Below, piece after piece: positions 13,177 to 35,545 of a DNA stretch of 64,000 bases (position 1 is the first letter of the stretch; each line of letters starts with the position of its first letter). This DNA is from Polyangia bacterium (GTDB lineage Bacteria > Myxococcota_A > Polyangia > Nannocystales > Nannocystaceae), in the NCBI GenBank assembly GCA_030429545.1, contig JAUIFF010000001.1:779599-843598 (forward strand). Reading direction: 5' to 3'. Below the pieces are notes generated by a model that made no database searches, had not been told where the DNA came from, and saw nothing but the letters and a program-made list of their open reading frames with translations. A program made the translations under genes and the position numbers.

Positions 13177-16100
13177 GTGTGTGCAGCAACGGTAGTCGAG
13201 TTACTGCATGCTTCAACGCTGTGGCGTCTCGAACGTAGCTCGAGCCGTGACGGGGGAACGAAGTTCCTCGTTCGACGGCCGCGAAGTGACAGTGCGGCTC
13301 GGCGGGCTGAGTTGCGTCATGAGTTCGGGATCCGTGGGCGGCTACCGCAGGGGGTCGCCCTGTATCCCCGGGCTATCGAGCGTCGTGATGCGGGGATTGT
13401 GCTGCTCTACGACGACTTTCCCGGCCAGCCATTGGCTGCCCGCAAGACCCTGCGATGGCAACCGGACGCGGTTGAAGCATTCGCCCGCAATGCCGCTGAA
13501 GCACTCGCTACGCTTCACCACGCAGGGGTGATCCACGGCGGTCTGTACCCGGGTTCGATCCTCGTTGCTGACGACGGTGCGATTCGATTTACCGAGTTCA
13601 CTGCCGCCGGTGTCGTTAGCCAGGCGACGGTTGTCGATGAGACGTCGCGGATTGGTGCTGAACTCGCCTATGTCGCACCGGAGCAGACGGGGCGGATGAA
13701 TCGTCCGATCGACCAAAGGTGCGATCTCTATGCCCTCGGTGTGATTCTCTACGAGCTGCTCAGTGGCGCCCCTCCGTTTGTCAGCGCCGACCCGCTCGAA
13801 CTCATCCATTCGCACATGACCGCCAAGCCGCCCCCGTTGCATGGGGACAATACGCGTAGCCGGCGACTCATCGCGGTCATCCAGCGCCTGCTCGCCAAGG
13901 AGCCCGCCGACCGCTTCGCGGATGCCAACCAGCTTCTCGCCGCCCTAAGCGACGGGGAACAAATCCACGACGCCACGGCAACACTGCGGTTACCGGGAAC
14001 ACTCTACGGTCGTGAGCAGGAAAAAATCCAGCTTCGTGACGCCTTTGCACAGGTCTCCAACGGAGTCTGTGTACTTGCACTGGTATCGGGAAGCGCTGGC
14101 GCCGGGAAGTCGTCGTTGGTGTTTGAAACCCTGCGCCCGGTGGGTGCGGTAGAGGGGCTGTTTGTCGCCGGTACCTGCGATCCCCTCCGGCGAGGTGCAC
14201 CCTTTGCCGCGATTTTTGATGTCGCACGCGGTCTCATCCAGTACGTACTCACACTCGACAATACCGACGTCGAACAATGGCGTACGCGGATGGAGCAAGG
14301 GATGGGTCCTTTTCTCCCTGTGCTGACCACCGTGGTGGTCGATGCAATTGCACTGTTTGGTGAACTCGAGGAGCCCCCTCCCTTACCGCCGGCTGACGCC
14401 CAGCGTCGACTCGAACGTACACTGCAGCGGTTCATCACCGCGTTCGCCAGGGCCCAGCGACCACTGATTGTGTTTCTCGATGACATGCAGTGGGTCGATG
14501 CCGCGTCTTTGCGCCTGATCGAGTCACTGCTCTACGACGCGGCCGGTCTCCATCTCTTGATCGTCGGTGCCTATCGCAACGAAGCGGTCGCGCCGAGGCA
14601 CCGGCTGACAGCATTTATTGAGCGCAGCCAACAACTACCCACAACTCCGATTGAAGTCCGGCTCGGGCCACTCGATGAGGTGAACATTCGCGCGTTGCTG
14701 CATGATACCCTCGGGTTTGGCAAGGTCGATAGCCTCGTCGATGAACTTGTCCTGCGCACCGGGGGCAATCCCCTGTTTGTCCGCGAGTTCCTGCGGTTTC
14801 TCGATCGCCAACGCCTGCTGCATTACGACACCCGTCGCGCGGCTTGGGAGCTACGCAGTCTTTCGAGTGCCGTGTTGCCGGATAGTGTTGCCGAGCTTCT
14901 CGGTGCCGAGTTACGCCAACTGCCGGTGCAGACCCAACGGGTCCTGCAACATGCAGCTTGTATCGGCATGTACTTTGACACCCAAGCCCTGGCCGAACTC
15001 GTGGGTTGGTCGACAGCCGAGTTGCGTGATGCCCTTGCCCCGGCTCTCGAGCTTGATCTTCTCGTTGCCGAGGACCCGGGGCATTTGGGGTCGAACCTCC
15101 GCTTTCTCCACGACCGAATCCGGCAGGAGGCCTTTGCCCCCCTCGATCACGCGGATCGTGGGAAGATCCATGCTGCGATTGGCCGTCGCCTACTTGCGCA
15201 TTCCGGCGACTACGCGAGCTTGGACGATGCGGCGTTGTTCGACCTAGTCGATCATCTGAACTCCGGGGCGGGGTACCTAGATGAGCAGGAGCGACAATTG
15301 CTGATTCGCCTCAACCTCGCGGCGGCTCGGCGAGCGAAGGCGAGCGCAACGTATCAGGTTGCACGGGCGTTGTTACGTATCGCCTGCAAACTCGCAGACG
15401 GTGCGAAACCGGTGGGTACAAACTTTGACGTTCGTGCGGAACTGATCGAGTGTGAGCACCTCGCCGGGGACAACGCCCACGCGTTACAACTTCTCGACGC
15501 CTTTGAGCCCGAGGTCGAAGACCTGGTTGCGCGACTTCGTCTCGCCGATTTGCGGGTGATTTTGGGGGTGAGTGCCGGCGAGACCGATCGCGCCCTCGCG
15601 GCCGGGCGGCGGGCCCTTGCAGCGGCGGGTGTACACATACCCGAAAGCGCCGAAGCCTGCCGGCTTGCAGTTGCCAAAGAGTTGGCAACGATTGAGGCAT
15701 TTCTCGAGCGCGTGCCCCTCCAGGAACGAATTTCCGCGCCAGCGGTCGCCAACCCTGTCATCCGGGCAACGCTCACCCTCTTGGCCGACATGCTTGCGCC
15801 TGCAAACATGTTGCACCCACAACTATACTCGCTGATCAATACAACCCAGATTCGGCTCTCGATCGAGCATGGCCATACCGATGTTTCGGCCTACACCTAT
15901 GCTGTGTTTGGCTATTTTCTGGCCACGGCGATGGGGCGCTACGAGCAGGCCGAGGCCTTTGGCCGGTTTGCCCTCGAGCTCAACGAGGCGTTGGCGAATG
16001 CGGCGGCCCGTTGCCGGATTCGCTTTGTTTTTGCCACCTATGCCCATTTCTTCCGCCCGCTATCAGCTGTACTCAACGATCTGAATGTCGCGTTGGCGGA

Positions 16101-18240
16101 CGGACTCGAGTCGGGTGACTACATCTACTTATCCTCGGCATGCTCGCATATTCTGATCATTCGATTAAGCCTCGGCGACCCCCTTGATGCGCTCTCCGAC
16201 CAGGCTGATGAGTTTCTCGAGCTCATGGAACGTACCCGGGTTGCCTCATCCATTGCCTCCCAACGGGTCGCAAGGCAACTGATTGCAGCACTTCGTGGCA
16301 AGACCCTTGCCCCCCATCGCCTCGCCGATGAATCATTCGACGAGGATGTATTTATCGCTACCTGTGAAGCGAAAGGGCGGACCTTCGCGCTGCATTGGTA
16401 TGCGACCGTCTCCCTGTACTTGGCCGTGTTGTATGGTCGGCTCGATCGGGCGCGGGAGCTTCTCGACCGTTTTGGTGACGCGATTCGCGGTAACTACGTA
16501 TTTTACTTTGCCACCGAGTTTGCCACCTACGCCTGCCTCGCCCTATTTGACCTCGCTACTGCCGCCACTTCGGCCGACGAGCGGGAGGCTTTACTTGTCC
16601 AAATCGATGTCTACCGCCGGCAGGTCGAGCATTGGGCGGAAGCTTGCGAGGCGAACTACGGTTCCATGGCCCAACTTCTCGCCGCTGAAATGGCCAGTGT
16701 TCGTGGTGACGAGTCGGATGCGCTTGCTGGCTACGATGCCGCCCTTGCCAGCGCGCGGGCCCAGGGCCTGAGCTCGCGCGAAGCCCTGATTTGCGAGCGT
16801 GCAGCTGCGTACCATCAACGTCGTCATCGCAACCAGCTCGCCCAAGTACTCCGCCGCGAAGCCTCCGATGCTTACCAGCTTTGGGGGGCAAGTCGCCGTG
16901 TCGCCGTACTCCAAGAATCCCTGGCTAGGCGCGAAGCTCCCCCCAAGATCACCGACGTTACGACCGCAGACCTCGATCTTCGCAGCATTCTTCAGGCATC
17001 ACAGGTACTGTCATCGACCCTGCGATTTGAAGACTTGCTGCGCACGGTGATGCGGATCGTCGCCCTGACCGGGTCGGCAACCCGGGCCGCGCTGATCCTC
17101 GATGACGAGGACCAGGGTCTGCACGTTGCCGCCACCTCCCAGGCGCAAGGGCCCCTGGAGGCGGGGCCCAAGCACCACCGCCTCGACTCCGAGGCCGACA
17201 CCCCGGTAACCGCGATTCGACTCGCCTTTCGGACTCGTCGCCAAATTGTCCTTGATGCGCGCGAGCACGGGCAGTTACGCGACCATGACACCTATCTTGC
17301 GAGGGTGCAGCCGCGCTCCGCACTGTGTGTACCTTTGGTGTTTCAAAGCCGTGTACTCGGCGTTTTGTACCTCGAGCATCGGACCACCACGGGGGTTTTT
17401 ACACCCACGCGCCGCGAGGCTCTCGAGATGCTCGCATCCCAGATTGCAATCTCCCTGGAGCACGCCAACATGTACGCGAATGTCGAGCGTGCGCGCGAGC
17501 AAGCAGAAGCCGCCAACCGGGCCAAGAGTACCTTCCTCGCAACCATGAGCCACGAGCTGCGAACGCCTTTGAACTCGATTCTCGGCTACACAGAGCTCAT
17601 CCTAGAGGAGTCGGCGGAGCGTGGTGAAACCGAGTCCCACGAAGATCTTAACCGGGTCCTTCGGGCAGGTGAACACCTGCTCGAAGTTATTAGTGACATT
17701 CTCGACCTCTCAAAGATCGAGGCGGAGCGGATCGAGTTGATGGTCGCCGAGTTCTCGGTGCGCGACCTGCTTGAAGGCGTGGTCGAGGCGACCGCTCCGG
17801 CGGTTTCTGGCAATGGCAACACCTTTATCTTTGATCCGCCAGCTGATCTTGGCACCATGCATTCAGACCAGCTACGCCTGCGCCAAATCCTGCTTAACCT
17901 CCTGAGTAACGCCGCGAAGTTTACCCGTCATGGCACCATCACCCTCGGTGCAGCCCGGGTTGGCCAACGCATCCGCTTTGTTGTGCAGGATACAGGCATT
18001 GGTATCACCGCCGTGGACCTCGAACGAATTTTCGATGCATTTGCACAGGTTGATGGGTCTGCGACCCGCCGATTTGGTGGCACCGGGCTCGGGCTCACCA
18101 TCAGCCAGAGGCTCGCCATGCTCATGGGTGGGGGCATCACTGTCGACAGCAAGCTCGGAAAGGGGTCCCGGTTTACGGTTGAGCTCCCCACCCAAATTCC
18201 ATCTACTCACCAGGAACAATCGGAGAAGCAGCAGTCATGA
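13177..18240 (+). CDS. Hybrid pseudokinase / AAA ATPase / GAF / histidine kinase
   Basis: A 1687-residue cytoplasmic signalling protein. Residues 1-270 have a Ser/Thr kinase fold, but the catalytic loop is HGGLYPGS (residues 120-127) instead of HRDxKxxN, the DFG position reads TEF (139-141), and the VAIK lysine appears to be Arg. The domain is therefore probably a pseudokinase. Residues 280-600 form an AAA/STAND-like ATPase (Walker A GSAGAGKSS near 304-312; Walker B FLDDMQW). About 600-1260 is a helical TPR-like region, about 1265-1430 a GAF domain, then a coiled coil, HisKA with H1459 in MSHELRTPL, and HATPase (NAAKFT, DTGIG, GGTGLGL). No receiver domain is fused. The stop overlaps the GST start (ATGA). 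The layout matches large hybrid kinases of myxobacteria and cyanobacteria. Confidence 0.9.
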   Translation: MCAATVVELLHASTLWRLERSSSRDGGTKFLVRRPRSDSAARRAELRHEFGIRGRLPQGVALYPRAIERRDAGIVLLYDDFPGQPLAARKTLRWQPDAVEAFARNAAEALATLHHAGVIHGGLYPGSILVADDGAIRFTEFTAAGVVSQATVVDETSRIGAELAYVAPEQTGRMNRPIDQRCDLYALGVILYELLSGAPPFVSADPLELIHSHMTAKPPPLHGDNTRSRRLIAVIQRLLAKEPADRFADANQLLAALSDGEQIHDATATLRLPGTLYGREQEKIQLRDAFAQVSNGVCVLALVSGSAGAGKSSLVFETLRPVGAVEGLFVAGTCDPLRRGAPFAAIFDVARGLIQYVLTLDNTDVEQWRTRMEQGMGPFLPVLTTVVVDAIALFGELEEPPPLPPADAQRRLERTLQRFITAFARAQRPLIVFLDDMQWVDAASLRLIESLLYDAAGLHLLIVGAYRNEAVAPRHRLTAFIERSQQLPTTPIEVRLGPLDEVNIRALLHDTLGFGKVDSLVDELVLRTGGNPLFVREFLRFLDRQRLLHYDTRRAAWELRSLSSAVLPDSVAELLGAELRQLPVQTQRVLQHAACIGMYFDTQALAELVGWSTAELRDALAPALELDLLVAEDPGHLGSNLRFLHDRIRQEAFAPLDHADRGKIHAAIGRRLLAHSGDYASLDDAALFDLVDHLNSGAGYLDEQERQLLIRLNLAAARRAKASATYQVARALLRIACKLADGAKPVGTNFDVRAELIECEHLAGDNAHALQLLDAFEPEVEDLVARLRLADLRVILGVSAGETDRALAAGRRALAAAGVHIPESAEACRLAVAKELATIEAFLERVPLQERISAPAVANPVIRATLTLLADMLAPANMLHPQLYSLINTTQIRLSIEHGHTDVSAYTYAVFGYFLATAMGRYEQAEAFGRFALELNEALANAAARCRIRFVFATYAHFFRPLSAVLNDLNVALADGLESGDYIYLSSACSHILIIRLSLGDPLDALSDQADEFLELMERTRVASSIASQRVARQLIAALRGKTLAPHRLADESFDEDVFIATCEAKGRTFALHWYATVSLYLAVLYGRLDRARELLDRFGDAIRGNYVFYFATEFATYACLALFDLATAATSADEREALLVQIDVYRRQVEHWAEACEANYGSMAQLLAAEMASVRGDESDALAGYDAALASARAQGLSSREALICERAAAYHQRRHRNQLAQVLRREASDAYQLWGASRRVAVLQESLARREAPPKITDVTTADLDLRSILQASQVLSSTLRFEDLLRTVMRIVALTGSATRAALILDDEDQGLHVAATSQAQGPLEAGPKHHRLDSEADTPVTAIRLAFRTRRQIVLDAREHGQLRDHDTYLARVQPRSALCVPLVFQSRVLGVLYLEHRTTTGVFTPTRREALEMLASQIAISLEHANMYANVERAREQAEAANRAKSTFLATMSHELRTPLNSILGYTELILEESAERGETESHEDLNRVLRAGEHLLEVISDILDLSKIEAERIELMVAEFSVRDLLEGVVEATAPAVSGNGNTFIFDPPADLGTMHSDQLRLRQILLNLLSNAAKFTRHGTITLGAARVGQRIRFVVQDTGIGITAVDLERIFDAFAQVDGSATRRFGGTGLGLTISQRLAMLMGGGITVDSKLGKGSRFTVELPTQIPSTHQEQSEKQQS

Positions 18241-27205: not shown

Positions 27206-27235
27206 TTGACCGCTCGTGGGTTCTTAGCGTAGGAT
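27206..27235 (+). promoter_or_regulatory. Sigma-70-type promoter of the tubulin operon
   Basis: TTGACC (27206-27211), an 18-nt spacer, and TAGGAT (27230-27235). An ATG lies 6 nt after the -10 box, the spacing seen at many leaderless starts in this window. The promoter feeds the short leader frame at 27242 and then both tubulin genes. Confidence 0.65.
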
Positions 27236-27241
27236 CTGCGA

Positions 27242-27274
27242 ATGCTGTATCCGCTTGGCGAGAATCGGGTTTGA
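27242..27274 (+). CDS. Candidate 10-residue leader peptide before the tubulin genes
   Basis: ATG at 27242 encodes MLYPLGENRV and stops with TGA at 27272-27274. The beta-like tubulin ATG begins only one base later (27276) in another frame, and that start has no good ribosome-binding site of its own. The position 6 nt after TAGGAT suggests a leaderless leader peptide that hands ribosomes to the tubulin start by coupling. No experimental evidence exists. The alternative is that the tubulin ATG is used directly from a 5' leader of about 40 nt. Confidence 0.4.
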   Translation: MLYPLGENRV

Positions 27275-27275
27275 A

Positions 27276-28607
27276 ATGGGCCAGGAAATAATCTGCATAC
27301 AGGTGGGGCAGTGCGGCAATCAAATCGGCGCCAACTTCTGGCAGGCCATAGCTGAGGAGCAGGGACTCGACACATCGGGCAAGTTTGTTCGCACAAACAA
27401 AACGGTCGACGCCCGCCGGCGAGCCAAGGCCGAAGTCTTTTTTCGCCAGGTCGGGGCCGACCGATTTGTGCCCCGCGCGGTGCTCGTAGACCTCGAGCCA
27501 GGGACGCTGGATGTTATCAAAGCGAGCCCGATGGGCACGATGTTCAAGCCCGACAACTTTGTGTTCGGCAACTCGGGGGCCGGGAACAACTGGGCCAAGG
27601 GCCACTACACTGAGGGGGCTGAGCTCATCGATCAGGTGCTCGATGCTGTCCGCCGAGAGGTTGACAGCTGTCGCTCGTTGCAGGGTTTTATGTTGTTCCA
27701 CTCGCTAGGTGGCGGGACCGGTTCGGGGCTCGGCACCCTGATCTTGCGCAAGCTCAAAGACCTGTATCCAAAGCAACTTTGTGTGACGTTTTCGGTGGCA
27801 CCTTCGGCCAAAGTTAGCGACGTGGCTGTCGAGCCCTACAATGCCGTGTTGTCCCTGCATCAGTTGATCGAAAATTCGGATCTAACTTTTTTGGTCGACA
27901 ACGAAGGTCTACTCAATATTGCCCGCAATACACTCAAACAAAAGACGCCAAAGTACCCCGATTTAAACTGGGTGCTGTCGCACGCAGTCACCGGCGCCAC
28001 GGCATCGTTGCGGTTCGCTAGCCGGGCACTGGGCGATCTGCGAAGCTTGGTGATGAACTTGGCTCCGTATCCGAGGTTGCACTTTGTCACGCTGGCCCAT
28101 GCGCCCATGTATGCCGCGGGGTCGCAGCCCCGGGTAAAGCTGTCCGCTTCCCAGGTGACCGCCGAGGTGTGGAAGCCTCGCAGCTGGCTAGCGAGTTTCC
28201 GAGCCGATGCGAAAATTGTCGCTGCCGCGCTGACATATCGCGGAAACCCGACGGCCCGCGAGCTCGATCAGGTCGCTACCGACAACCTCGCCAACCCCAG
28301 CAGGTTTGTCGAGGCGTTCACCAACGGTGCAGTGGTGTCGGCACCCTCCACACCCAAACCTCCAGTCAAAATCACCGCCACCATCGCGGCCAACACTACC
28401 GGTGTCACCGGCATGCTCCAACGGATCAATAGCGAGTTTGCAAACCTGTACAAGCGCAAAGCATTTTTGCATTGGTACAAAGGCGAAGGCATGGATGAGC
28501 AGGAGTTTCAAGAAGCGCATCGAAATGTCAGGGATCTAATCAGTGCTTATGAGAGCCTCGAACAAGGTATCTACACAGGCCTAAGTGGCGTCCTCGGGGA
28601 GAACTAG
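27276..28607 (+). CDS. Eukaryote-like tubulin, beta-like subunit
   Basis: The 443-residue protein aligns over its whole length with eukaryotic beta-tubulin from memory. QVGQCGNQIG (9-18) is the first nucleotide loop. SGAGNNWAKGHYTEGAEL (100-117) is identical to beta-tubulin. HSLGGGTGSG (142-151) is the tubulin signature. FSVAPSAKVSDVAVEPYNA, the T7 region GDLRSL (D254), PYPRLHF and RKAFLHWYKGEGMDEQEF also match. The S9-S10 loop (about 351-371) is short, as in beta. It should bind GTP and polymerise with the product of the next gene. It lacks the acidic C-terminal tail and ends GVLGEN. FtsZ is far more divergent and is ruled out. The closest known bacterial counterparts are BtubA/BtubB of Prosthecobacter. 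GC appears somewhat lower than in the flanks, suggesting horizontal acquisition. Confidence 0.95.
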   Translation: MGQEIICIQVGQCGNQIGANFWQAIAEEQGLDTSGKFVRTNKTVDARRRAKAEVFFRQVGADRFVPRAVLVDLEPGTLDVIKASPMGTMFKPDNFVFGNSGAGNNWAKGHYTEGAELIDQVLDAVRREVDSCRSLQGFMLFHSLGGGTGSGLGTLILRKLKDLYPKQLCVTFSVAPSAKVSDVAVEPYNAVLSLHQLIENSDLTFLVDNEGLLNIARNTLKQKTPKYPDLNWVLSHAVTGATASLRFASRALGDLRSLVMNLAPYPRLHFVTLAHAPMYAAGSQPRVKLSASQVTAEVWKPRSWLASFRADAKIVAAALTYRGNPTARELDQVATDNLANPSRFVEAFTNGAVVSAPSTPKPPVKITATIAANTTGVTGMLQRINSEFANLYKRKAFLHWYKGEGMDEQEFQEAHRNVRDLISAYESLEQGIYTGLSGVLGEN

Positions 28608-28630
28608 CCACAGCAAGGGAGGTAAGACCG

Positions 28631-29905
28631 GTGCGCGAAATCATAACAATCGGCATTGGCGGTGCAGGGTGCTCGATGGCCCATCAATTTTGGCGTCGAG
28701 TGATGCGCGAGCACACCATCGACAACAGTGGTAGGCGGACCCACGACGACGGCCGTGGGCAGGCTTTTTTTGAGAAGTCCTCGAGCAATCGGTTTACGCC
28801 CCGGGCGCTATTCGTCGACCTAGACCCGGCGTCCATCAAACAGCTTCGAGGTTCCGGCATCAAGGTTTATCACTCCGACTTTATGCTCAGTGGCGATGCC
28901 GGCACAGGTGGAAACTTTGCCCGCGGTCGCTACGCGGCAGGAAGCAAGTTGATTGCCAAGGTCGAGGACCGGTTGCAAAAACTCGTCGACCAGACAAAAA
29001 ATCTTCAGGGTTTTTTGATCTTCATGGCCTTGGGTGGGGGAACCGGCTCGGGCCTTGGAGCCCTCGTTCTAGAGCGGTTGACAGCCAAGTACCGCAAAAA
29101 ATCAAAGGTGGTGTTTGGCCTGTTTCCAGCACAGACCCTGCGCTCATCGCTCGTTGAGCACCACAACGCAGTGCTCACAGTTCCGACGTTGCTCGACCAC
29201 AGTGACATCACCTTTGTGTGCGACAACGACACGCTACGCCGGACTTGCACCGCGAACCTAAACATCAAATATCCTACGTACGACGACATCAACGAGCTCA
29301 TCTCGCGGGCAGCAGCAGACATCACCGCCGGCATCCGATTTGAGACCGGCGACCTCGCCGACCTAGCGAGCTTGCAGACCAAATTAATCCCGAGCCCAAG
29401 ACTACAGTTTGTCACAATGTCGACTGCTCCCATCACCACCAAGGCGAAGGTGGGGACCGCAGACACCAACATCCAATCGATGATGGTCAAGGCCGTACAA
29501 GACGAGCCGGTCGGCGACAATACGGCAAAATACCTGTCAGCAGCGCTTGTCTGCCGCGGGCCAATTGCCGTGAAAGAGATCAACGCCGCGGTCTCTTGGA
29601 TCACCTCCCAAAACATACTGACATTCGCGCCAAATATGCCAACCGGCCTGTCACAAAGCCTCGTCGAGACCCCAACTGGTAGCCTGAGTGATGACAATGC
29701 CGGGGCCGTGGGCCGAACTGTTACCCTGCTGAGCAACACCACCGGCATTGCCAAATACCTGCGTGAACACGTCACCGATAGGTTCGATCAAATGTTCGCA
29801 GCAGAAGCGTTTGTACATGCATGCGTGGGTGCAGGGCTCGAGCCCGCAGCGTTCGTGCAGGCGCGGGACAACCTGAGTTTGTTGGCCAATGACTATGAGA
29901 TCTAG
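28631..29905 (+). CDS. Eukaryote-like tubulin, alpha-like subunit
   Basis: A 424-residue tubulin starting at GTG 28631 behind a strong AGGGAGGT site, 23 bp after the beta-like gene. It resembles alpha-tubulin specifically: MREI N-terminus, NLQGFLIFMALGGGTGSG (124-141), LERLTAKYRKKSK, the HSD and DNDTL segments, YPTYDDINELISR, ITAGIRF, PSPRLQF and LLSNTTGIAKY, ending in NDYEI. The stretch between MPTG (336-339) and LSNTT (367-371) is 27 residues, the long alpha-type S9-S10 loop. The T7 loop keeps the aspartate (D244), but the alpha-specific catalytic Glu254 position reads Ser (S247). The first loop is IGGAGCSM, shorter and less conserved than in the beta-like partner. It is predicted to form a heterodimer with the preceding gene product. 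Confidence 0.94.
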   Translation: MREIITIGIGGAGCSMAHQFWRRVMREHTIDNSGRRTHDDGRGQAFFEKSSSNRFTPRALFVDLDPASIKQLRGSGIKVYHSDFMLSGDAGTGGNFARGRYAAGSKLIAKVEDRLQKLVDQTKNLQGFLIFMALGGGTGSGLGALVLERLTAKYRKKSKVVFGLFPAQTLRSSLVEHHNAVLTVPTLLDHSDITFVCDNDTLRRTCTANLNIKYPTYDDINELISRAAADITAGIRFETGDLADLASLQTKLIPSPRLQFVTMSTAPITTKAKVGTADTNIQSMMVKAVQDEPVGDNTAKYLSAALVCRGPIAVKEINAAVSWITSQNILTFAPNMPTGLSQSLVETPTGSLSDDNAGAVGRTVTLLSNTTGIAKYLREHVTDRFDQMFAAEAFVHACVGAGLEPAAFVQARDNLSLLANDYEI

Positions 29906-30078: not shown

Positions 30079-31317
30079 GTGCTACGTCAAACGTTGTTCG
30101 CTCTTGTATTTTTGTCTTTCGCGGCCGCAGCCTGCGGCGATGATTCGACTGGAGTCACCGGGACTGAGGGGCCAGGTAGCGATACGCAAGACGACGCGAC
30201 CAGCGATATGTCGGAAAGTACAGAAATGAGTAGTACGGGCGATGGCGATGGCGACGGGGACGGAGATGGCGATGGGGACGGCGATGGGGACGGCGATGGC
30301 GACGGAGATGGGGACGGAGATGGCGATGGGGACGGAGATGGCGATGGGGACGGAGATGGCGATGGGGACGGAGATGGCGATGGGGACGGAGATGGAGACG
30401 GCGATGGCGATAGTTGCCTCGACCCCGGTGAAGTTGGAGCACTCAATTTCACAACTGTCGATTCGACCATAAGTGAGTTCTTTACTGAGTCTAACTTAGC
30501 GACTGTGTTGGCCAGCGACGAAGCCTACAGCGACTTTTTTGACGGAACCCCCCCGCTTGATTTTGCCTCTGAGTGGCTCGTGCTCGTCCACCCGAACCGT
30601 CGTCCATTTGGTACGCATTATGAGATTGTCGGCCTAGAAAATGACGGGTCGTGTGGTCTCGACGTGCAATACTCCGTACAAGCGCTTGGCGATAACTGTG
30701 CGAACTTTGAGTATACCCGGCCTGGGCCGGCGCTCGTGCGTACAGACATTGCCTTTACTCCTCCCCCTGTCGACGCGCCCACGCTCACGCCAGCTCCAGG
30801 GCAGGCGTTTGACTGCGAGTCCTTGGGCGCGCTCGAGTTTGAGGTTTGTAGCGAAGAGCACTGGTGTGCACCGGGGTTGATTTGCGCGGGGATTACCCGG
30901 AGCGATAGCGGACTGTGTATGGACGCAAGTTTGCGGGGGACATTTGCAAGTCCCCAGCTCGACCTCGAGATTCTCGCGGGCGAAACCCTGGTCGAACCTA
31001 TCATTGTCGACGGTCTCGCCAGCGTTGATATGGACGTGATTGTTGCCGTGAATGTGGAGCATCCAGATCCGGCTGTACTGACGATTACACTGACCAACCC
31101 AGACACCAACGAGGTGCTTGTTTGGGATCAGGAGCCGAGCCCCTATACTGCCTCGTGGTACCCTGATCCAGGTTTGCTGCCGATCTGGCGAGTTCCCGTT
31201 GGTTTTTCTGGCGATGAGTCGGTCAACGGAGAGTGGCGACTCAAGATTACGAACGCAGGTGAAGACTCCGGAGTGTTAATCGACTGGAGTATCGAGATTA
31301 TGAGCCGTTACGACTGA
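30079..31317 (+). CDS. Lipoprotein with (Asp-Gly)n repeat and C-terminal P-domain-like module
   Basis: The 412-residue protein has a lipobox signal ([13 protein letters not shown]), a linker, about 29 tandem Asp-Gly dipeptides (roughly residues 54-111), and a globular part with several cysteines. The last 120 residues ([20 protein letters not shown] to [10 protein letters not shown]) match the jelly-roll P/Homo B domain of proprotein convertases, with [16 protein letters not shown] near the end. The acidic repeat probably acts as an extended calcium-binding spacer displaying the P-domain-like module at the surface. TACCAT 6 nt before the GTG fits a leaderless transcript. It is downstream of the tubulin genes but has its own promoter. 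Confidence 0.85.
30239..30412 (+). repeat. Tandem GAYGGN hexanucleotide repeat encoding (Asp-Gly)n
   Basis: About 29 copies of a 6-bp unit run in frame through the lipoprotein gene, with an 18-bp higher-order unit (GATGGCGATGGGGACGGA) repeated about five times from about 30305. The array is likely to change length by slippage or recombination. Confidence 0.9.
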
Positions 31318-33219: not shown

Positions 33220-33968
33220 CCATTCGTGAACAACACATCCCCGATGACTGCCTTTCGGATTTTGTGCTCGACGCGTTGCGGATAGGTGCACTCGACCCAT
33301 CTCGCGGCCCGGAAGTCCGCAGGCATCTGCTTTCGTGTCGGCGCTGTCGGGCGCGGCAGCAACAGCTCGACGCCGATGCCGAGGCGAGCGAGTTGCCACC
33401 ACTGCCAGCCTCGCCACTGCCATTTCGCCGGCGTCTGCGAACGATCACGCTGTATACTGCGGCAGTTGCAGCACTGATTGTTTTTGTGGTGATAGGCGTC
33501 GAGACACAGCCGGAGTTGATCGAGAAATCACCCGACACTGGCGACTATGTGAGTACCCGCGTGAAGGGGACTGCAAGGTTGCTGTTTCATGTGCGGCGAG
33601 ACGAACGTGTATTCGAAGGTGGACCCGGCGAGGTGCTGTACCCCGGCGATACTGTACGGTTTGCCTACTCTTGGTCCCAAGGTGGCACGATAGCCGTGCT
33701 CAGCCGCGATGGTGCCGGGGTCTTAAGTGTGTACTTCCCAGCGACAGACGCGATGCATGAAATCACGGCCGGCCATGCTATCAGTTTGCCGGGCGCGGTG
33801 CTGCTCGATGATACGACCGGGGCGGAGATTTTTTACGGGGTGTTTTGCACGCGGCGCGTGCCGGTGGAGCGCCTTCGTCAGGCGGTCGCGCAACATCCAC
33901 AGGATCCGCGTCCACCGAGCGGATGTACGATCGACCAGATACGCGTGCGCAAGGAGGCGAGAGACTGA
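33216..33968 (+). CDS. Zinc-finger anti-sigma factor with DUF4384-like domain
   Basis: The 250-residue membrane protein has an N-terminal zf-HC2 motif (RRHLLSCRRCRARQQ), one transmembrane helix (LYTAAVAALIVFVVIGV) and an extracytoplasmic beta-rich domain like DUF4384 (FEGGPGEVLYPGDTVRFAYS and SVYFPATD). The cytoplasmic zinc finger should sequester the ECF sigma factor encoded immediately upstream. The outer domain is the presumed sensor. DUF4384 is often found with caspase-family proteins, which fits the next gene. Its stop overlaps the next ATG (TGATG). Confidence 0.85.
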   Translation: MTIREQHIPDDCLSDFVLDALRIGALDPSRGPEVRRHLLSCRRCRARQQQLDADAEASELPPLPASPLPFRRRLRTITLYTAAVAALIVFVVIGVETQPELIEKSPDTGDYVSTRVKGTARLLFHVRRDERVFEGGPGEVLYPGDTVRFAYSWSQGGTIAVLSRDGAGVLSVYFPATDAMHEITAGHAISLPGAVLLDDTTGAEIFYGVFCTRRVPVERLRQAVAQHPQDPRPPSGCTIDQIRVRKEARD

Positions 33969-35545
33969 TGTGTTGGCGGGCCCTGTTTTTGCTCGTCGTT
34001 GTGATGGGCGTGTGGCTTGCCCCGCGTGTGTCGTGGGCACAGGTTGTCCGCTATGCGGTACTGATAGGTAACAACGAGGGCGACGCCGACGAGGTCAGCC
34101 TGCGCTACGCCGAGCGCGATGCCACCCGCGTCTATGATGTTCTGCGCAACCTAGGAGGATTTCACGAGGAGAATCTCGTGGTTTTGCACGGGCGCGACCG
34201 CGAAACCGTGCAGCGCGTTTTGATCTCGACTAATGCCAGGATCCGCAGCGTCACGGGTCGCGGCGATCAGGCTGTGTTGTTTGTGTATTACTCAGGCCAC
34301 GCAGATGCAGATGCACTTCACCTCGGTGGCGAGCGGCTTGCCGTGTCGAGTCTGCAACAACTGCTGCGGGGTTCTCCGGCTGATTTTCGCATGCTCTTGC
34401 TCGATTCGTGTCGATCTGGTGCCGTCACCCGGGTCAAGGGGGGGAAACAGGCTCCGGCGTTTAAGGTCGCCTTCGATGAACGACTAGCGGGCGAAGGCCT
34501 GGTGTTTTTGACCTCGAGTGCGACCAACGAGGATGCGCAGGAGTCCGACCAGCTGCGCGGATCGTTTTTTACCCACTACTTTGTGTCGGGTTTAGTCGGG
34601 GCGGCGGATCTCGATGGCGACGGCGACATCACGCTCGCCGAGGCCTACGGATATGCCTATGATCATACGATTCGGGCCACCAGCGCGACCCTTTATGGGA
34701 CCCAGCACCCGACATTTCAATTCGATGTTCGCGGCCAGGGTGGGATTGTGCTGACGCGTGTCCGCGAGGTTGCCCGGGGTCATGCTCGCCTGCGCTTTCC
34801 GCCAGGTCGCACCTATCTCGTGTTTTCGGACGGGCCCCAGGGGGCTGTTGTTGCCGAGGTCGGGATCCACGATACGACGCGGACGATCACCGTTCGATCC
34901 GGCAAGTACTTTGTCCGCGGGCGTACCCGCGATCACTTACTCGAGGGACATATCAACGTTCGTGAACGGACGACACTCGATGTCAGCGACAACAACCTCA
35001 AGCGAGTGGAGTACGCCCGGTTGGTGCGCAAAGGCGGGGGCGGGTCGACCCTCGCCCACGGCCCGCTCGTCGGGTACCAGTTTCGCACGCCGCTATGGCC
35101 CCGGACAGGGCTCTGTCACGGTGTGCGGGTCGGGTATCCGGTTGATACCAGGTGGGTGAGTGTGGCCACGAGCTTTGGGTTTTGTCGCGCCGGTTTTGCA
35201 GCGAATCAGCTGACTGTGCAGGCCGATCATTACGACCTTGAACTAGTGGCTGCATATGTTTTTGATCTACCCGTTGTCAGCTTGGTACTCGGCCTTGGTG
35301 GTGGTGTCAGTCTGTTGCACCAGACGTTTGAGACCCAGGGGATCGCACCGCCTCGAAACACCGTTGGGGGCTATGCCGAGGCCCTTACAATGGCTCGAAT
35401 AACCCTTCCACGGGGCTTTTACCTCGCCGCCAGCGTCGCTGCGCAGGTCCAGGTTTTCTCTCAGCAAATCGCCGATCAAGATGTGGCGACAACACGTGCA
35501 GCTTTTACCGCACGGCCCACATTTGGGGTGGGGAAGTGGTTTTAG
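33968..35545 (+). CDS. Secreted caspase-family (C14) peptidase with C-terminal beta domain
   Basis: The 525-residue protein starts with a signal peptide (ALFLLVVVMGVWLAPRVSWA) behind a strong AAGGAGG site. A caspase-like domain follows with VLIGNNEGDADEVSLRYAER and the catalytic dyad H111 (YYSGHADAD) and C148 (LLLDSCRSG). The calcium-loop-like DLDGDGDITLAEAYGY lies in the middle. After about residue 270 come a beta-rich domain and a C-terminal region with outer-membrane-protein-like strands. Translation is coupled to the anti-sigma gene. A periplasmic caspase in an ECF operon may sense or execute proteolytic stress, but its substrate is unknown. The signal peptide makes a cytoplasmic death effector unlikely. 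Confidence 0.87.
   Translation: MCWRALFLLVVVMGVWLAPRVSWAQVVRYAVLIGNNEGDADEVSLRYAERDATRVYDVLRNLGGFHEENLVVLHGRDRETVQRVLISTNARIRSVTGRGDQAVLFVYYSGHADADALHLGGERLAVSSLQQLLRGSPADFRMLLLDSCRSGAVTRVKGGKQAPAFKVAFDERLAGEGLVFLTSSATNEDAQESDQLRGSFFTHYFVSGLVGAADLDGDGDITLAEAYGYAYDHTIRATSATLYGTQHPTFQFDVRGQGGIVLTRVREVARGHARLRFPPGRTYLVFSDGPQGAVVAEVGIHDTTRTITVRSGKYFVRGRTRDHLLEGHINVRERTTLDVSDNNLKRVEYARLVRKGGGGSTLAHGPLVGYQFRTPLWPRTGLCHGVRVGYPVDTRWVSVATSFGFCRAGFAANQLTVQADHYDLELVAAYVFDLPVVSLVLGLGGGVSLLHQTFETQGIAPPRNTVGGYAEALTMARITLPRGFYLAASVAAQVQVFSQQIADQDVATTRAAFTARPTFGVGKWF

What the first reader, a model, noticed from the sequence alone, without database searches (positions are those of the whole stretch)
27206..29905. 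Operon of two eukaryote-like tubulins with beta-like and alpha-like partners in a myxobacterium
Both proteins are full-length tubulins rather than FtsZ. The first shares long near-identical stretches with eukaryotic beta-tubulin (for example SGAGNNWAKGHYTEGAEL and RKAFLHWYKGEGMDEQEF). The second matches alpha-tubulin (for example ERLTAKYRKKSK and LLSNTTGIAKY). They are 23 bp apart behind one promoter. The bacterial tubulins I know, BtubA/BtubB, come from Prosthecobacter (Verrucomicrobia) and each mixes alpha and beta traits. A clean alpha/beta split in a Myxococcota-like genome would be new to me and relevant to tubulin origin or transfer.
Basis: partly seen in the sequence, partly recalled or inferred. 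Interest (0 to 1): 0.98.

Follow-up and report, generated by a model that had tools for sequence, protein, structure and literature searches.

The report
Foraminifer-type tubulin pair in a myxobacterium
A bacterium from a myxobacterial family carries side-by-side genes for full-length beta- and alpha-tubulin, the building blocks of microtubules; the beta chain groups with that of the foraminifer Ammonia and similar sequences, and the alpha chain lacks the glutamate that normally splits GTP, so the pair was likely taken from a single-celled eukaryote and is predicted to build unusually stable filaments.

Summary
In detail: two intact eukaryote-type tubulin genes, beta (ATG 27276-28607) then alpha (GTG 28631-29905), 23 bp apart, on a 1.55 Mb bacterial contig. 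Five of 317 class genomes searched have such a pair, all in the window's family. The alpha/beta split is clean, and they are not BtubA/B, FtsZ or TubZ. In trees the beta chain, seven similar rows (three from named bacterial records, one of them gammaproteobacterial) and 23 divergent eukaryotic rows including the foraminifer Ammonia share a branch (100/100) apart from canonical beta. Nesting inside that eukaryotic group is borderline (AU p 0.058-0.127). Alpha joins unnamed divergent eukaryotic alphas (100/97-99), but site counts and identities are ambiguous. Catalytic Glu254 is missing in 7 of 7 alphas of the group and present in 14 of 14 alpha2-like and 24 of 24 canonical eukaryotic rows; the matching beta lysine is lost in 7 of 8. 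Best reading: an acquired tubulin pair predicted to form GTP-locked, non-dynamic filaments. Assembly and role are untested. One Methylococcaceae MAG has a second, separately acquired pair.

The parts
27276..28607 (+). beta-tubulin gene (443 aa, ATG), foraminifer-type (beta2-like)
28631..29905 (+). alpha-tubulin gene (424 aa, GTG), without catalytic Glu254
28608..28630 (+). 23-bp spacer with SD-like AGGGAGG before the alpha GTG
27708..27728 (+). beta T4 GTP-binding loop GGGTGSG
28044..28046 (+). beta T7/H8 Ser where eukaryotic beta has Lys (alpha-254 equivalent)
29033..29053 (+). alpha T4 GTP-binding loop GGGTGSG
29369..29371 (+). alpha T7/H8 Ser in place of the catalytic Glu254
29669..29713 (+). 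alpha S9-S10 loop with the alpha-type 8-residue insert, absent from the window's beta

Best explanation
Window 27276-29905 is an intact two-gene unit encoding full-length beta- and alpha-tubulin in a bacterial chromosome, likely acquired from a eukaryote with foraminifer-type tubulins and predicted to assemble as an alpha/beta heterodimer into filaments that would stay GTP-bound because the alpha chain lacks the catalytic glutamate. Shown by sequence: both genes are open; beta keeps the nucleotide-contact positions checked (Q11, E71, N101, D179, E183, N206, N228 in alpha numbering); alpha keeps the T4 loop and D251 but has Ser at 254; beta has Ser at the matching position. Inferred: beta GTP exchanges and drives head-to-tail assembly as in other tubulins; with no acid at either T7 interface, hydrolysis on assembly would be slow or absent and the polymer would behave like human E254A microtubules (hyper-stable, no catastrophe). 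Untested: assembly itself, protofilament number, regulation and cellular role; my guess is a stable internal scaffold beside the cell's own FtsZ.
For: Host genome; own FtsZ on contig C12. Beta origin: with 7 similar rows and 23 eukaryotic beta2-like rows including Ammonia P0084 it forms one side of a branch at 100/100 or 99/100. At 55 sites that separate 17 core beta2 rows from 7 canonical betas, window beta has 28 beta2-type, 3 canonical and 24 other residues, P0090 41/5/9, P0038 32/3/20, P0004 21/7/27, whereas the Methylococcaceae-type controls have 7/34/14 and 6/34/15. Identity is 54.6% to beta2 P0040 against 46.8% to human TUBB. Alpha: 21-row clade with 14 alpha2-like rows at 100/97 and 100/99. 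Catalysis: Glu254 in 0 of 7 alphas of the group, 14 of 14 alpha2-like, 24 of 24 canonical, 4 of 4 Methylococcaceae-type and 12 of 12 Btub rows counted (12 of the 17 Btub rows held); beta Lys lost in 7 of 8 but kept in 30 of 31 rows labelled eukaryotic. Human E254A microtubules are hyper-stable without catastrophes (PMC7018511 passages) and E254A/N are hydrolysis-deficient (PMC8764682 passages). Constraint: YN00 dN, dS 0.084, 1.079 (beta) and 0.098, 0.821 (alpha) between L014 and L015. Fold.
Against: AU tests do not reject the 23 beta2 eukaryotes as a clade of their own (p 0.127 with an alpha outgroup; 0.058 without), nor all eukaryotic betas as one clade without the bacteria (p 0.342); only the test that holds 18 of the 23 together rejected, at 0.044. 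The more divergent G009/G017-type betas are weaker in the site count (15-18 beta2-type, 8-10 canonical of 55), and with all 23 beta2 rows as donor the window has 20/4 of 47 and P0253 10/10. Few beta sites showed a derived beta2 residue by outgroup (6 of 55; window 3 beta2-type, 1 canonical). Alpha is ambiguous: window 11 alpha2-type, 13 canonical, 23 other of 47 sites, and of 9 such polarised sites 1 against 4; identity is 36-40% to alpha2-like rows and 34-37% to canonical ones. Only Ammonia is a named beta2 row in the trees; no alpha2-like row is named, and a passage of PMC4990898 says foraminiferal alpha differs little from other alpha, so a foraminiferal label for alpha is an inference. Four of the 8 beta rows and four of the 7 alpha rows of the group come from unnamed contigs. 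Alpha also lost Q11, D98 and N101 and has Asp for E71, so its own nucleotide site may be altered. NG86 dN/dS is 0.43 and 0.49, much weaker than YN00. No dimer model or assay was run.
Confidence: 0.55

Rival explanations
1. The pair is a eukaryote-derived tubulin operon that still makes dynamic, GTP-hydrolysing microtubule-like filaments, with another residue doing the work of Glu254.
For: D251 is kept in 7 of 7 alphas of the group and the beta nucleotide contacts checked are intact in the window; dN is below dS between L014 and L015.
Against: Glu254 is lost in all 7 alphas to three different residues and no acid stands at the matching beta position in any of the 8 betas; E254A and E254N human tubulins are hydrolysis-deficient (PMC8764682).
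Confidence: 0.2
2. The pair is an old prokaryotic or Asgard-derived tubulin (Btub/Atub kin) that only resembles eukaryotic alpha and beta.
For: An Asgard origin is proposed for BtubA/B (PMC13394414, part 1 of Results); AU with an alpha outgroup does not fix where the root joins the beta tree (p 0.342).
Against: Btub and Atub rows form other clades; beta2-type residues 28 against 3 canonical; alpha has the S9-S10 insert that the Btub, Atub and Odin rows shown lack.
Confidence: 0.08
3. The genes are acquired and conserved but no longer make polymers; they act as GTP-binding heterodimers or are decaying, as the much more divergent pairs in G001 and G018 may suggest.
For: Nucleotide-site losses in alpha; very divergent pairs in G001 and G018, 46 and 45% identical to each other; matches in only 5 of 317 genomes of the class.
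Against: No stop inside the matches in the five genomes; beta-then-alpha order in 5 of 5; dN below dS; full-length fold models of good confidence.
Confidence: 0.15
4. The window pair is eukaryotic contamination or a misassembly.
For: Such contaminants exist in bins: L058 is an intron-split eukaryotic beta in a gammaproteobacterial bin.
Against: 1.55 Mb contig with bacterial neighbours, intronless genes, SD-like site, matching GC, pairs in four other genomes of the family, and a protein cluster for the window's beta that stands for three contigs.
Confidence: 0.02

Closest known systems
Foraminiferal/Retaria beta-tubulin type 2 (Ammonia P0084; the name beta2 is recalled from Habura 2005 and Hou 2013, Hou seen only as a cited reference in PMC4990898)
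   Same: Shared branch at 100/100, 28 beta2-type against 3 canonical of 55 sites, longer H1-S2 loop, KGEGMDE motif
   Different: In a bacterium, next to an alpha gene; long acidic tail absent (kept in P0090); Ser for Lys at T7
Divergent unnamed eukaryotic alphas (P0124-P0131, P0133-P0137, P0148), here called alpha2-like
   Same: Shared branch 100/97-99; YRKKSK; one extra residue just after NTTGIAKY
   Different: Only 36-40% identical; Glu254, Q11 and N101 lost in the bacterial alphas
BtubA/BtubB of Prosthecobacter and kin
   Same: Bacterial two-gene tubulin unit
   Different: Different clades (with AtubA/AtubB), no alpha S9-S10 insert in the rows shown, Glu at the 254 position in both subunits in the 12 rows counted
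Methylococcaceae bin_45 pair (L016) with unnamed P0265, P0143, P0149
   Same: Bacterial pair with alpha/beta split and eukaryotic affinity
   Different: Canonical-type beta and alpha, order alpha-beta, acid at T7 in both subunits; separate acquisition
Asgard AtubA/B and Heim alpha/beta tubulins (PMC13394414, PMC13371889)
   Same: Prokaryotic tandem tubulin genes
   Different: In another clade than the window pair; dynamic instability reported in those papers

Membership tests
Eukaryote-type tubulin | Tubulin GTPase domain plus Tubulin_C domain over curated cut-off | tested here: met
   both proteins
Beta-tubulin | Groups with eukaryotic beta, no alpha S9-S10 insert | tested here: met
Foraminifer-type beta2 | Shares a branch with Ammonia-type betas apart from canonical beta | tested here: met
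   100/100; 28 against 3 sites
Foraminifer-type beta2 | Nested inside the eukaryotic beta2 rows | tested here: inconclusive
   support 97-100/89-99 but AU p 0.058-0.127
Alpha-tubulin | Groups with eukaryotic alpha, has the 8-residue S9-S10 insert | tested here: met
Retaria alpha2 | Groups with named Retaria alpha2 | not testable with these tools
   no alpha2-like row is named; clade 100/97-99 with unnamed rows; sites ambiguous
GTPase-competent dynamic alpha/beta-tubulin | Catalytic Glu254 in alpha | tested here: not met
   Ser in the window, 0 of 7 in the group
GTPase-competent dynamic alpha/beta-tubulin | Polymerises and hydrolyses GTP | not testable with these tools
   needs protein
BtubA/BtubB | Clusters with BtubA and BtubB | tested here: not met
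BtubA/BtubB | Third gene bklc (TPR) beside the pair | tested here: not met
   no third gene beside the pair is shared between loci; of 10 window ORFs scanned, including the nearest annotated on each side, none hits a TPR model
FtsZ / TubZ | FtsZ_C domain or best match to FtsZ/TubZ | tested here: not met
   the genome's FtsZ_C match lies on contig C12

The most novel reading that the evidence does not exclude
A third, independent bacterial tubulin cytoskeleton: a foraminifer-type alpha2/beta2 pair captured by a family of myxobacteria (and related to a gammaproteobacterial beta), stripped of the catalytic Glu and its partner Lys so that the cell builds naturally GTP-locked, non-dynamic microtubule-like polymers.
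Probability: 0.43. Interest if true: 0.93.

Novelty: new variant of a known kind. Interest (0 to 1): 0.87.

Why it matters
The bacterial tubulins named in the papers read here are the verrucomicrobial BtubA/B, for which an Asgard origin is now proposed. A pair acquired from a derived eukaryote, with a clean alpha/beta split, would show that a eukaryotic heterodimer can be moved into bacteria and kept. It would also give a natural Glu254-less tubulin to test whether hydrolysis is needed for a useful tubulin polymer, and perhaps a tractable relative of foraminiferal helical-filament tubulin. The two bacterial lineages here (myxobacterial and Methylococcaceae-type) changed the T7 site in opposite ways (no acid in either subunit, acid in both), which makes the question directly testable in E. 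coli.

Tried and rejected
Rejected: FtsZ/TubZ; BtubA/B kin; contamination; phage carriage (one viral scan, none confirmed); a conserved third gene; a kinesin motor in the own genome (PF00225, no match); a real promoter at 27206. The empty-site comparison was left unfinished: the two flanking-gene searches gave dispersed homologues (RapZ_C gene at most 44% identical outside the genome; cytochrome up to E 2.5e-71), on different contigs in most genomes; I did not read those loci for synteny. NCBIfam gave no hit. Paper searches with little or no yield. The divergent pairs in G001 and G018 could not be placed.

Rows dropped before counts or trees: five partial beta rows (P0079, P0115, P0117, P0257, P0259) from the beta trees; human gamma from the beta trees after because it attached by a long branch; L016 beta, P0265, P0269 and L016 alpha, and those plus all other alpha rows; eight alpha-side rows plus beta and Atub outgroups; P0142, P0159 and P0166 from the alpha site count. 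P0269 is counted as eukaryotic but is unnamed, is the nearest row to the Methylococcaceae betas and may be bacterial. P0004, P0038, P0247, P0253 and P0122, P0123, P0132, P0138 are unnamed; I call them bacterial because they fall in the window group and each of these betas has an alpha whose longest contig has the same length. No alpha partner of P0090 was found in the listed hits.

Not-in-print claim rests on the held library only and on word searches inside PMC13394414 and PMC13371889; NCBI already labels P0244 'tubulin beta chain [Myxococcales bacterium]'.
Full report

WHERE IT LIVES. The window is part of a 1,548,822-bp contig of an unnamed 8.6 Mb genome, 94.8% complete and 2.2% contaminated. 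Neighbouring ORFs encode a multihaem cytochrome, a RapZ C-terminal domain protein and a P-domain protein (6 of 10 ORFs scanned had a Pfam hit). GC of the pair fits its surroundings. FtsZ is encoded elsewhere. With a profile search, 5 of 317 genomes of the class have matches, all in the window's family; the first search had found the same 5 of 39. The Tubulin_C Pfam model alone finds 3 of 29 family genomes, missing the two most divergent pairs. Among 12-47 kb of the window and five other loci (7-21 kb each), ORFs of 90 aa or more at E 1e-8 share only the tubulins (and frames overlapping them), apart from kinase-protein matches (35% over 229 aa and 29% over 234 aa) between window 13-18 kb and the G001 locus.

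WIDER SEARCH. A scan of GTDB r220 contigs gave 45 loci, mostly verrucomicrobial Btub genes, plus the two myxobacterial loci, a Heimdallarchaeota pair, a Methylococcaceae pair and a few odd bins. One scan of viral contigs confirmed none. Nearest rows to window beta that I treat as bacterial are P0004 (77%), P0038 (56%), P0244 (55%), P0253 (54%), P0090 (53%) and P0247 (52%); eukaryotic beta2-like rows such as P0035 (56%) and P0040 (55%) are as near. Of these, P0244 is named Myxococcales and P0090 Gammaproteobacteria (longest contig 1.2 Mb); the others are unnamed. The nearest alphas are P0122 (68%), P0123, P0132 and P0138, all unnamed (the 99% entry P0121 aside). In the Methylococcaceae order 1 of 251 sampled genomes has a pair.

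PHYLOGENY. In an 89-row tree the window-group betas sit inside a eukaryotic beta group with Ammonia, while BtubA/B sit with AtubA/AtubB as PMC13394414 reports, and the Methylococcaceae pair sits near canonical alpha and beta. Careful beta trees keep the 8 window-group rows plus 23 beta2-like rows together at 99-100/100. Two more splits at 97-100/89-99 place the bacterial rows inside beta2. The AU test is borderline on that nesting (p 0.127 with and 0.058 without an alpha outgroup; 0.044 for a related constraint) and with an alpha outgroup cannot fix where the root joins the beta tree (p 0.342). A tree-free count agrees on the donor type: at 55 diagnostic sites the window has 28 beta2-type against 3 canonical residues, P0090 41/5, P0038 32/3, P0004 21/7, and the four G009/G017-type rows 15-18 against 8-10, while the Methylococcaceae-type controls have 7/34 and 6/34. 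With all 23 beta2 rows as the donor group (47 sites) the window has 20/4 and P0253 10/10. Few sites could be polarised. For alpha, seven bacterial rows join 14 divergent eukaryotic rows at 100/97 and 100/99, but the site count is mixed (window 11 against 13 of 47; P0123 16/13; Methylococcaceae-type controls 3-5 against 22-29) and identities to alpha2-like and canonical rows overlap (36-40% and 34-37%), so the alpha donor is uncertain. The alpha-type S9-S10 insert is present in window alpha and absent from window beta and from the Btub, Atub and Odin rows shown.

CATALYTIC SITE. Alpha Glu254 is replaced by Ser, Ala or Thr in 7 of 7 window-group alphas; it is Glu in 14 of 14 alpha2-like, 24 of 24 canonical, 4 of 4 Methylococcaceae-type alphas and the 12 Btub rows counted (of 17 held). 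The matching beta Lys is lost in 7 of 8 window-group betas; P0090 keeps it, as do 30 of 31 rows labelled eukaryotic, the exception being unnamed P0269. Window beta keeps the other nucleotide contacts checked; window alpha has lost Q11, D98 and N101 and has Asp for E71, Ala for S140 and Ser for T179, but keeps the T4 loop, E183, N206, N228 and D251. Human tubulin with alpha E254A forms microtubules that nucleate strongly and show no catastrophes, and E254A/N microtubules are hydrolysis-deficient (passages of PMC7018511 and PMC8764682). Hence the prediction of GTP-locked filaments. Between L014 and L015, YN00 gives dN/dS near 0.1, NG86 0.43 and 0.49, so genes are constrained but the strength depends on the method.

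LITERATURE. PMC9871819 (2023; passages, including part of the abstract) limits prokaryotic tubulins to Odinarchaeota and Prosthecobacter. PMC13394414 (2026; passages and part 1 of 3 of Results) adds Asgard AtubA/B/C and more Verrucomicrobia; the words Myxococc-, Proteobacteria and Foraminifera do not occur in its held text. PMC13371889 (passages) names Prosthecobacter among bacteria and does not contain Myxococc-. PMC4990898 (outline, section 10, passages) describes foraminiferal helical filaments and a divergent Reticulomyxa beta (45% to bovine), with alpha at 82%; a passage says foraminiferal alpha differs little from other alpha, which does not support an alpha2 label. The names beta2 and alpha2 are recalled (Habura 2005, Hou 2013, Krabberod 2017; Hou and Krabberod were looked up by DOI and are not held; Habura was not looked up).

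VERDICT. Real, bacterial, eukaryote-derived and not described in the papers searched. Membership by descent in alpha- and beta-tubulin is met. Membership among dynamic GTPase tubulins is not claimed, because the catalytic residue is absent. Function is inferred from residues and precedent only.

Noticed in passing
L112:9071-11932 (G001) and L113:14074-16706 (G018): Very divergent beta-then-alpha pairs in the same family; their beta has Glu at the 254-equivalent (2 of 2), their alpha lacks it (2 of 2) and also lacks the S9-S10 insert. The AU test does not oppose placing these betas with the window group.
   Followed up: partly
L016:8598-11311 (Methylococcaceae bin_45): Alpha-then-beta pair of canonical eukaryotic type with acidic residues at T7 in both subunits; a separate acquisition.
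   Followed up: partly
L056 (Verrucomicrobia MAG-135), ORF from about 8297: One 921-aa open frame with two tubulin domains, a fused Btub-type pair.
   Followed up: no
L051 (Planktothrix sp. UBA8402): Methylococcaceae-type alpha-tubulin on a 15 kb contig of a cyanobacterial bin; the bin label may be wrong.
   Followed up: no
L058; L019 and L050: L058 is an intron-split eukaryotic beta in a gammaproteobacterial bin; L019/L050 carry canonical eukaryotic-type alpha in a Verrucomicrobiaceae bin. Both look like contaminants.
   Followed up: partly
P0090: Gammaproteobacterial beta with a long acidic tail ending EEEEEEDY, like the EEDF/EEEF tails of several foraminifer-type betas.
   Followed up: no
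window 33845-35545: Caspase-domain (Peptidase_C14) protein, 566 aa.
   Followed up: no
window 13177-18240: 1687-aa kinase-AAA-GAF-histidine kinase protein.
   Followed up: no
window 30240-30405: Long Gly-Asp repeat in an ORF with a proprotein-convertase P-domain.
   Followed up: no
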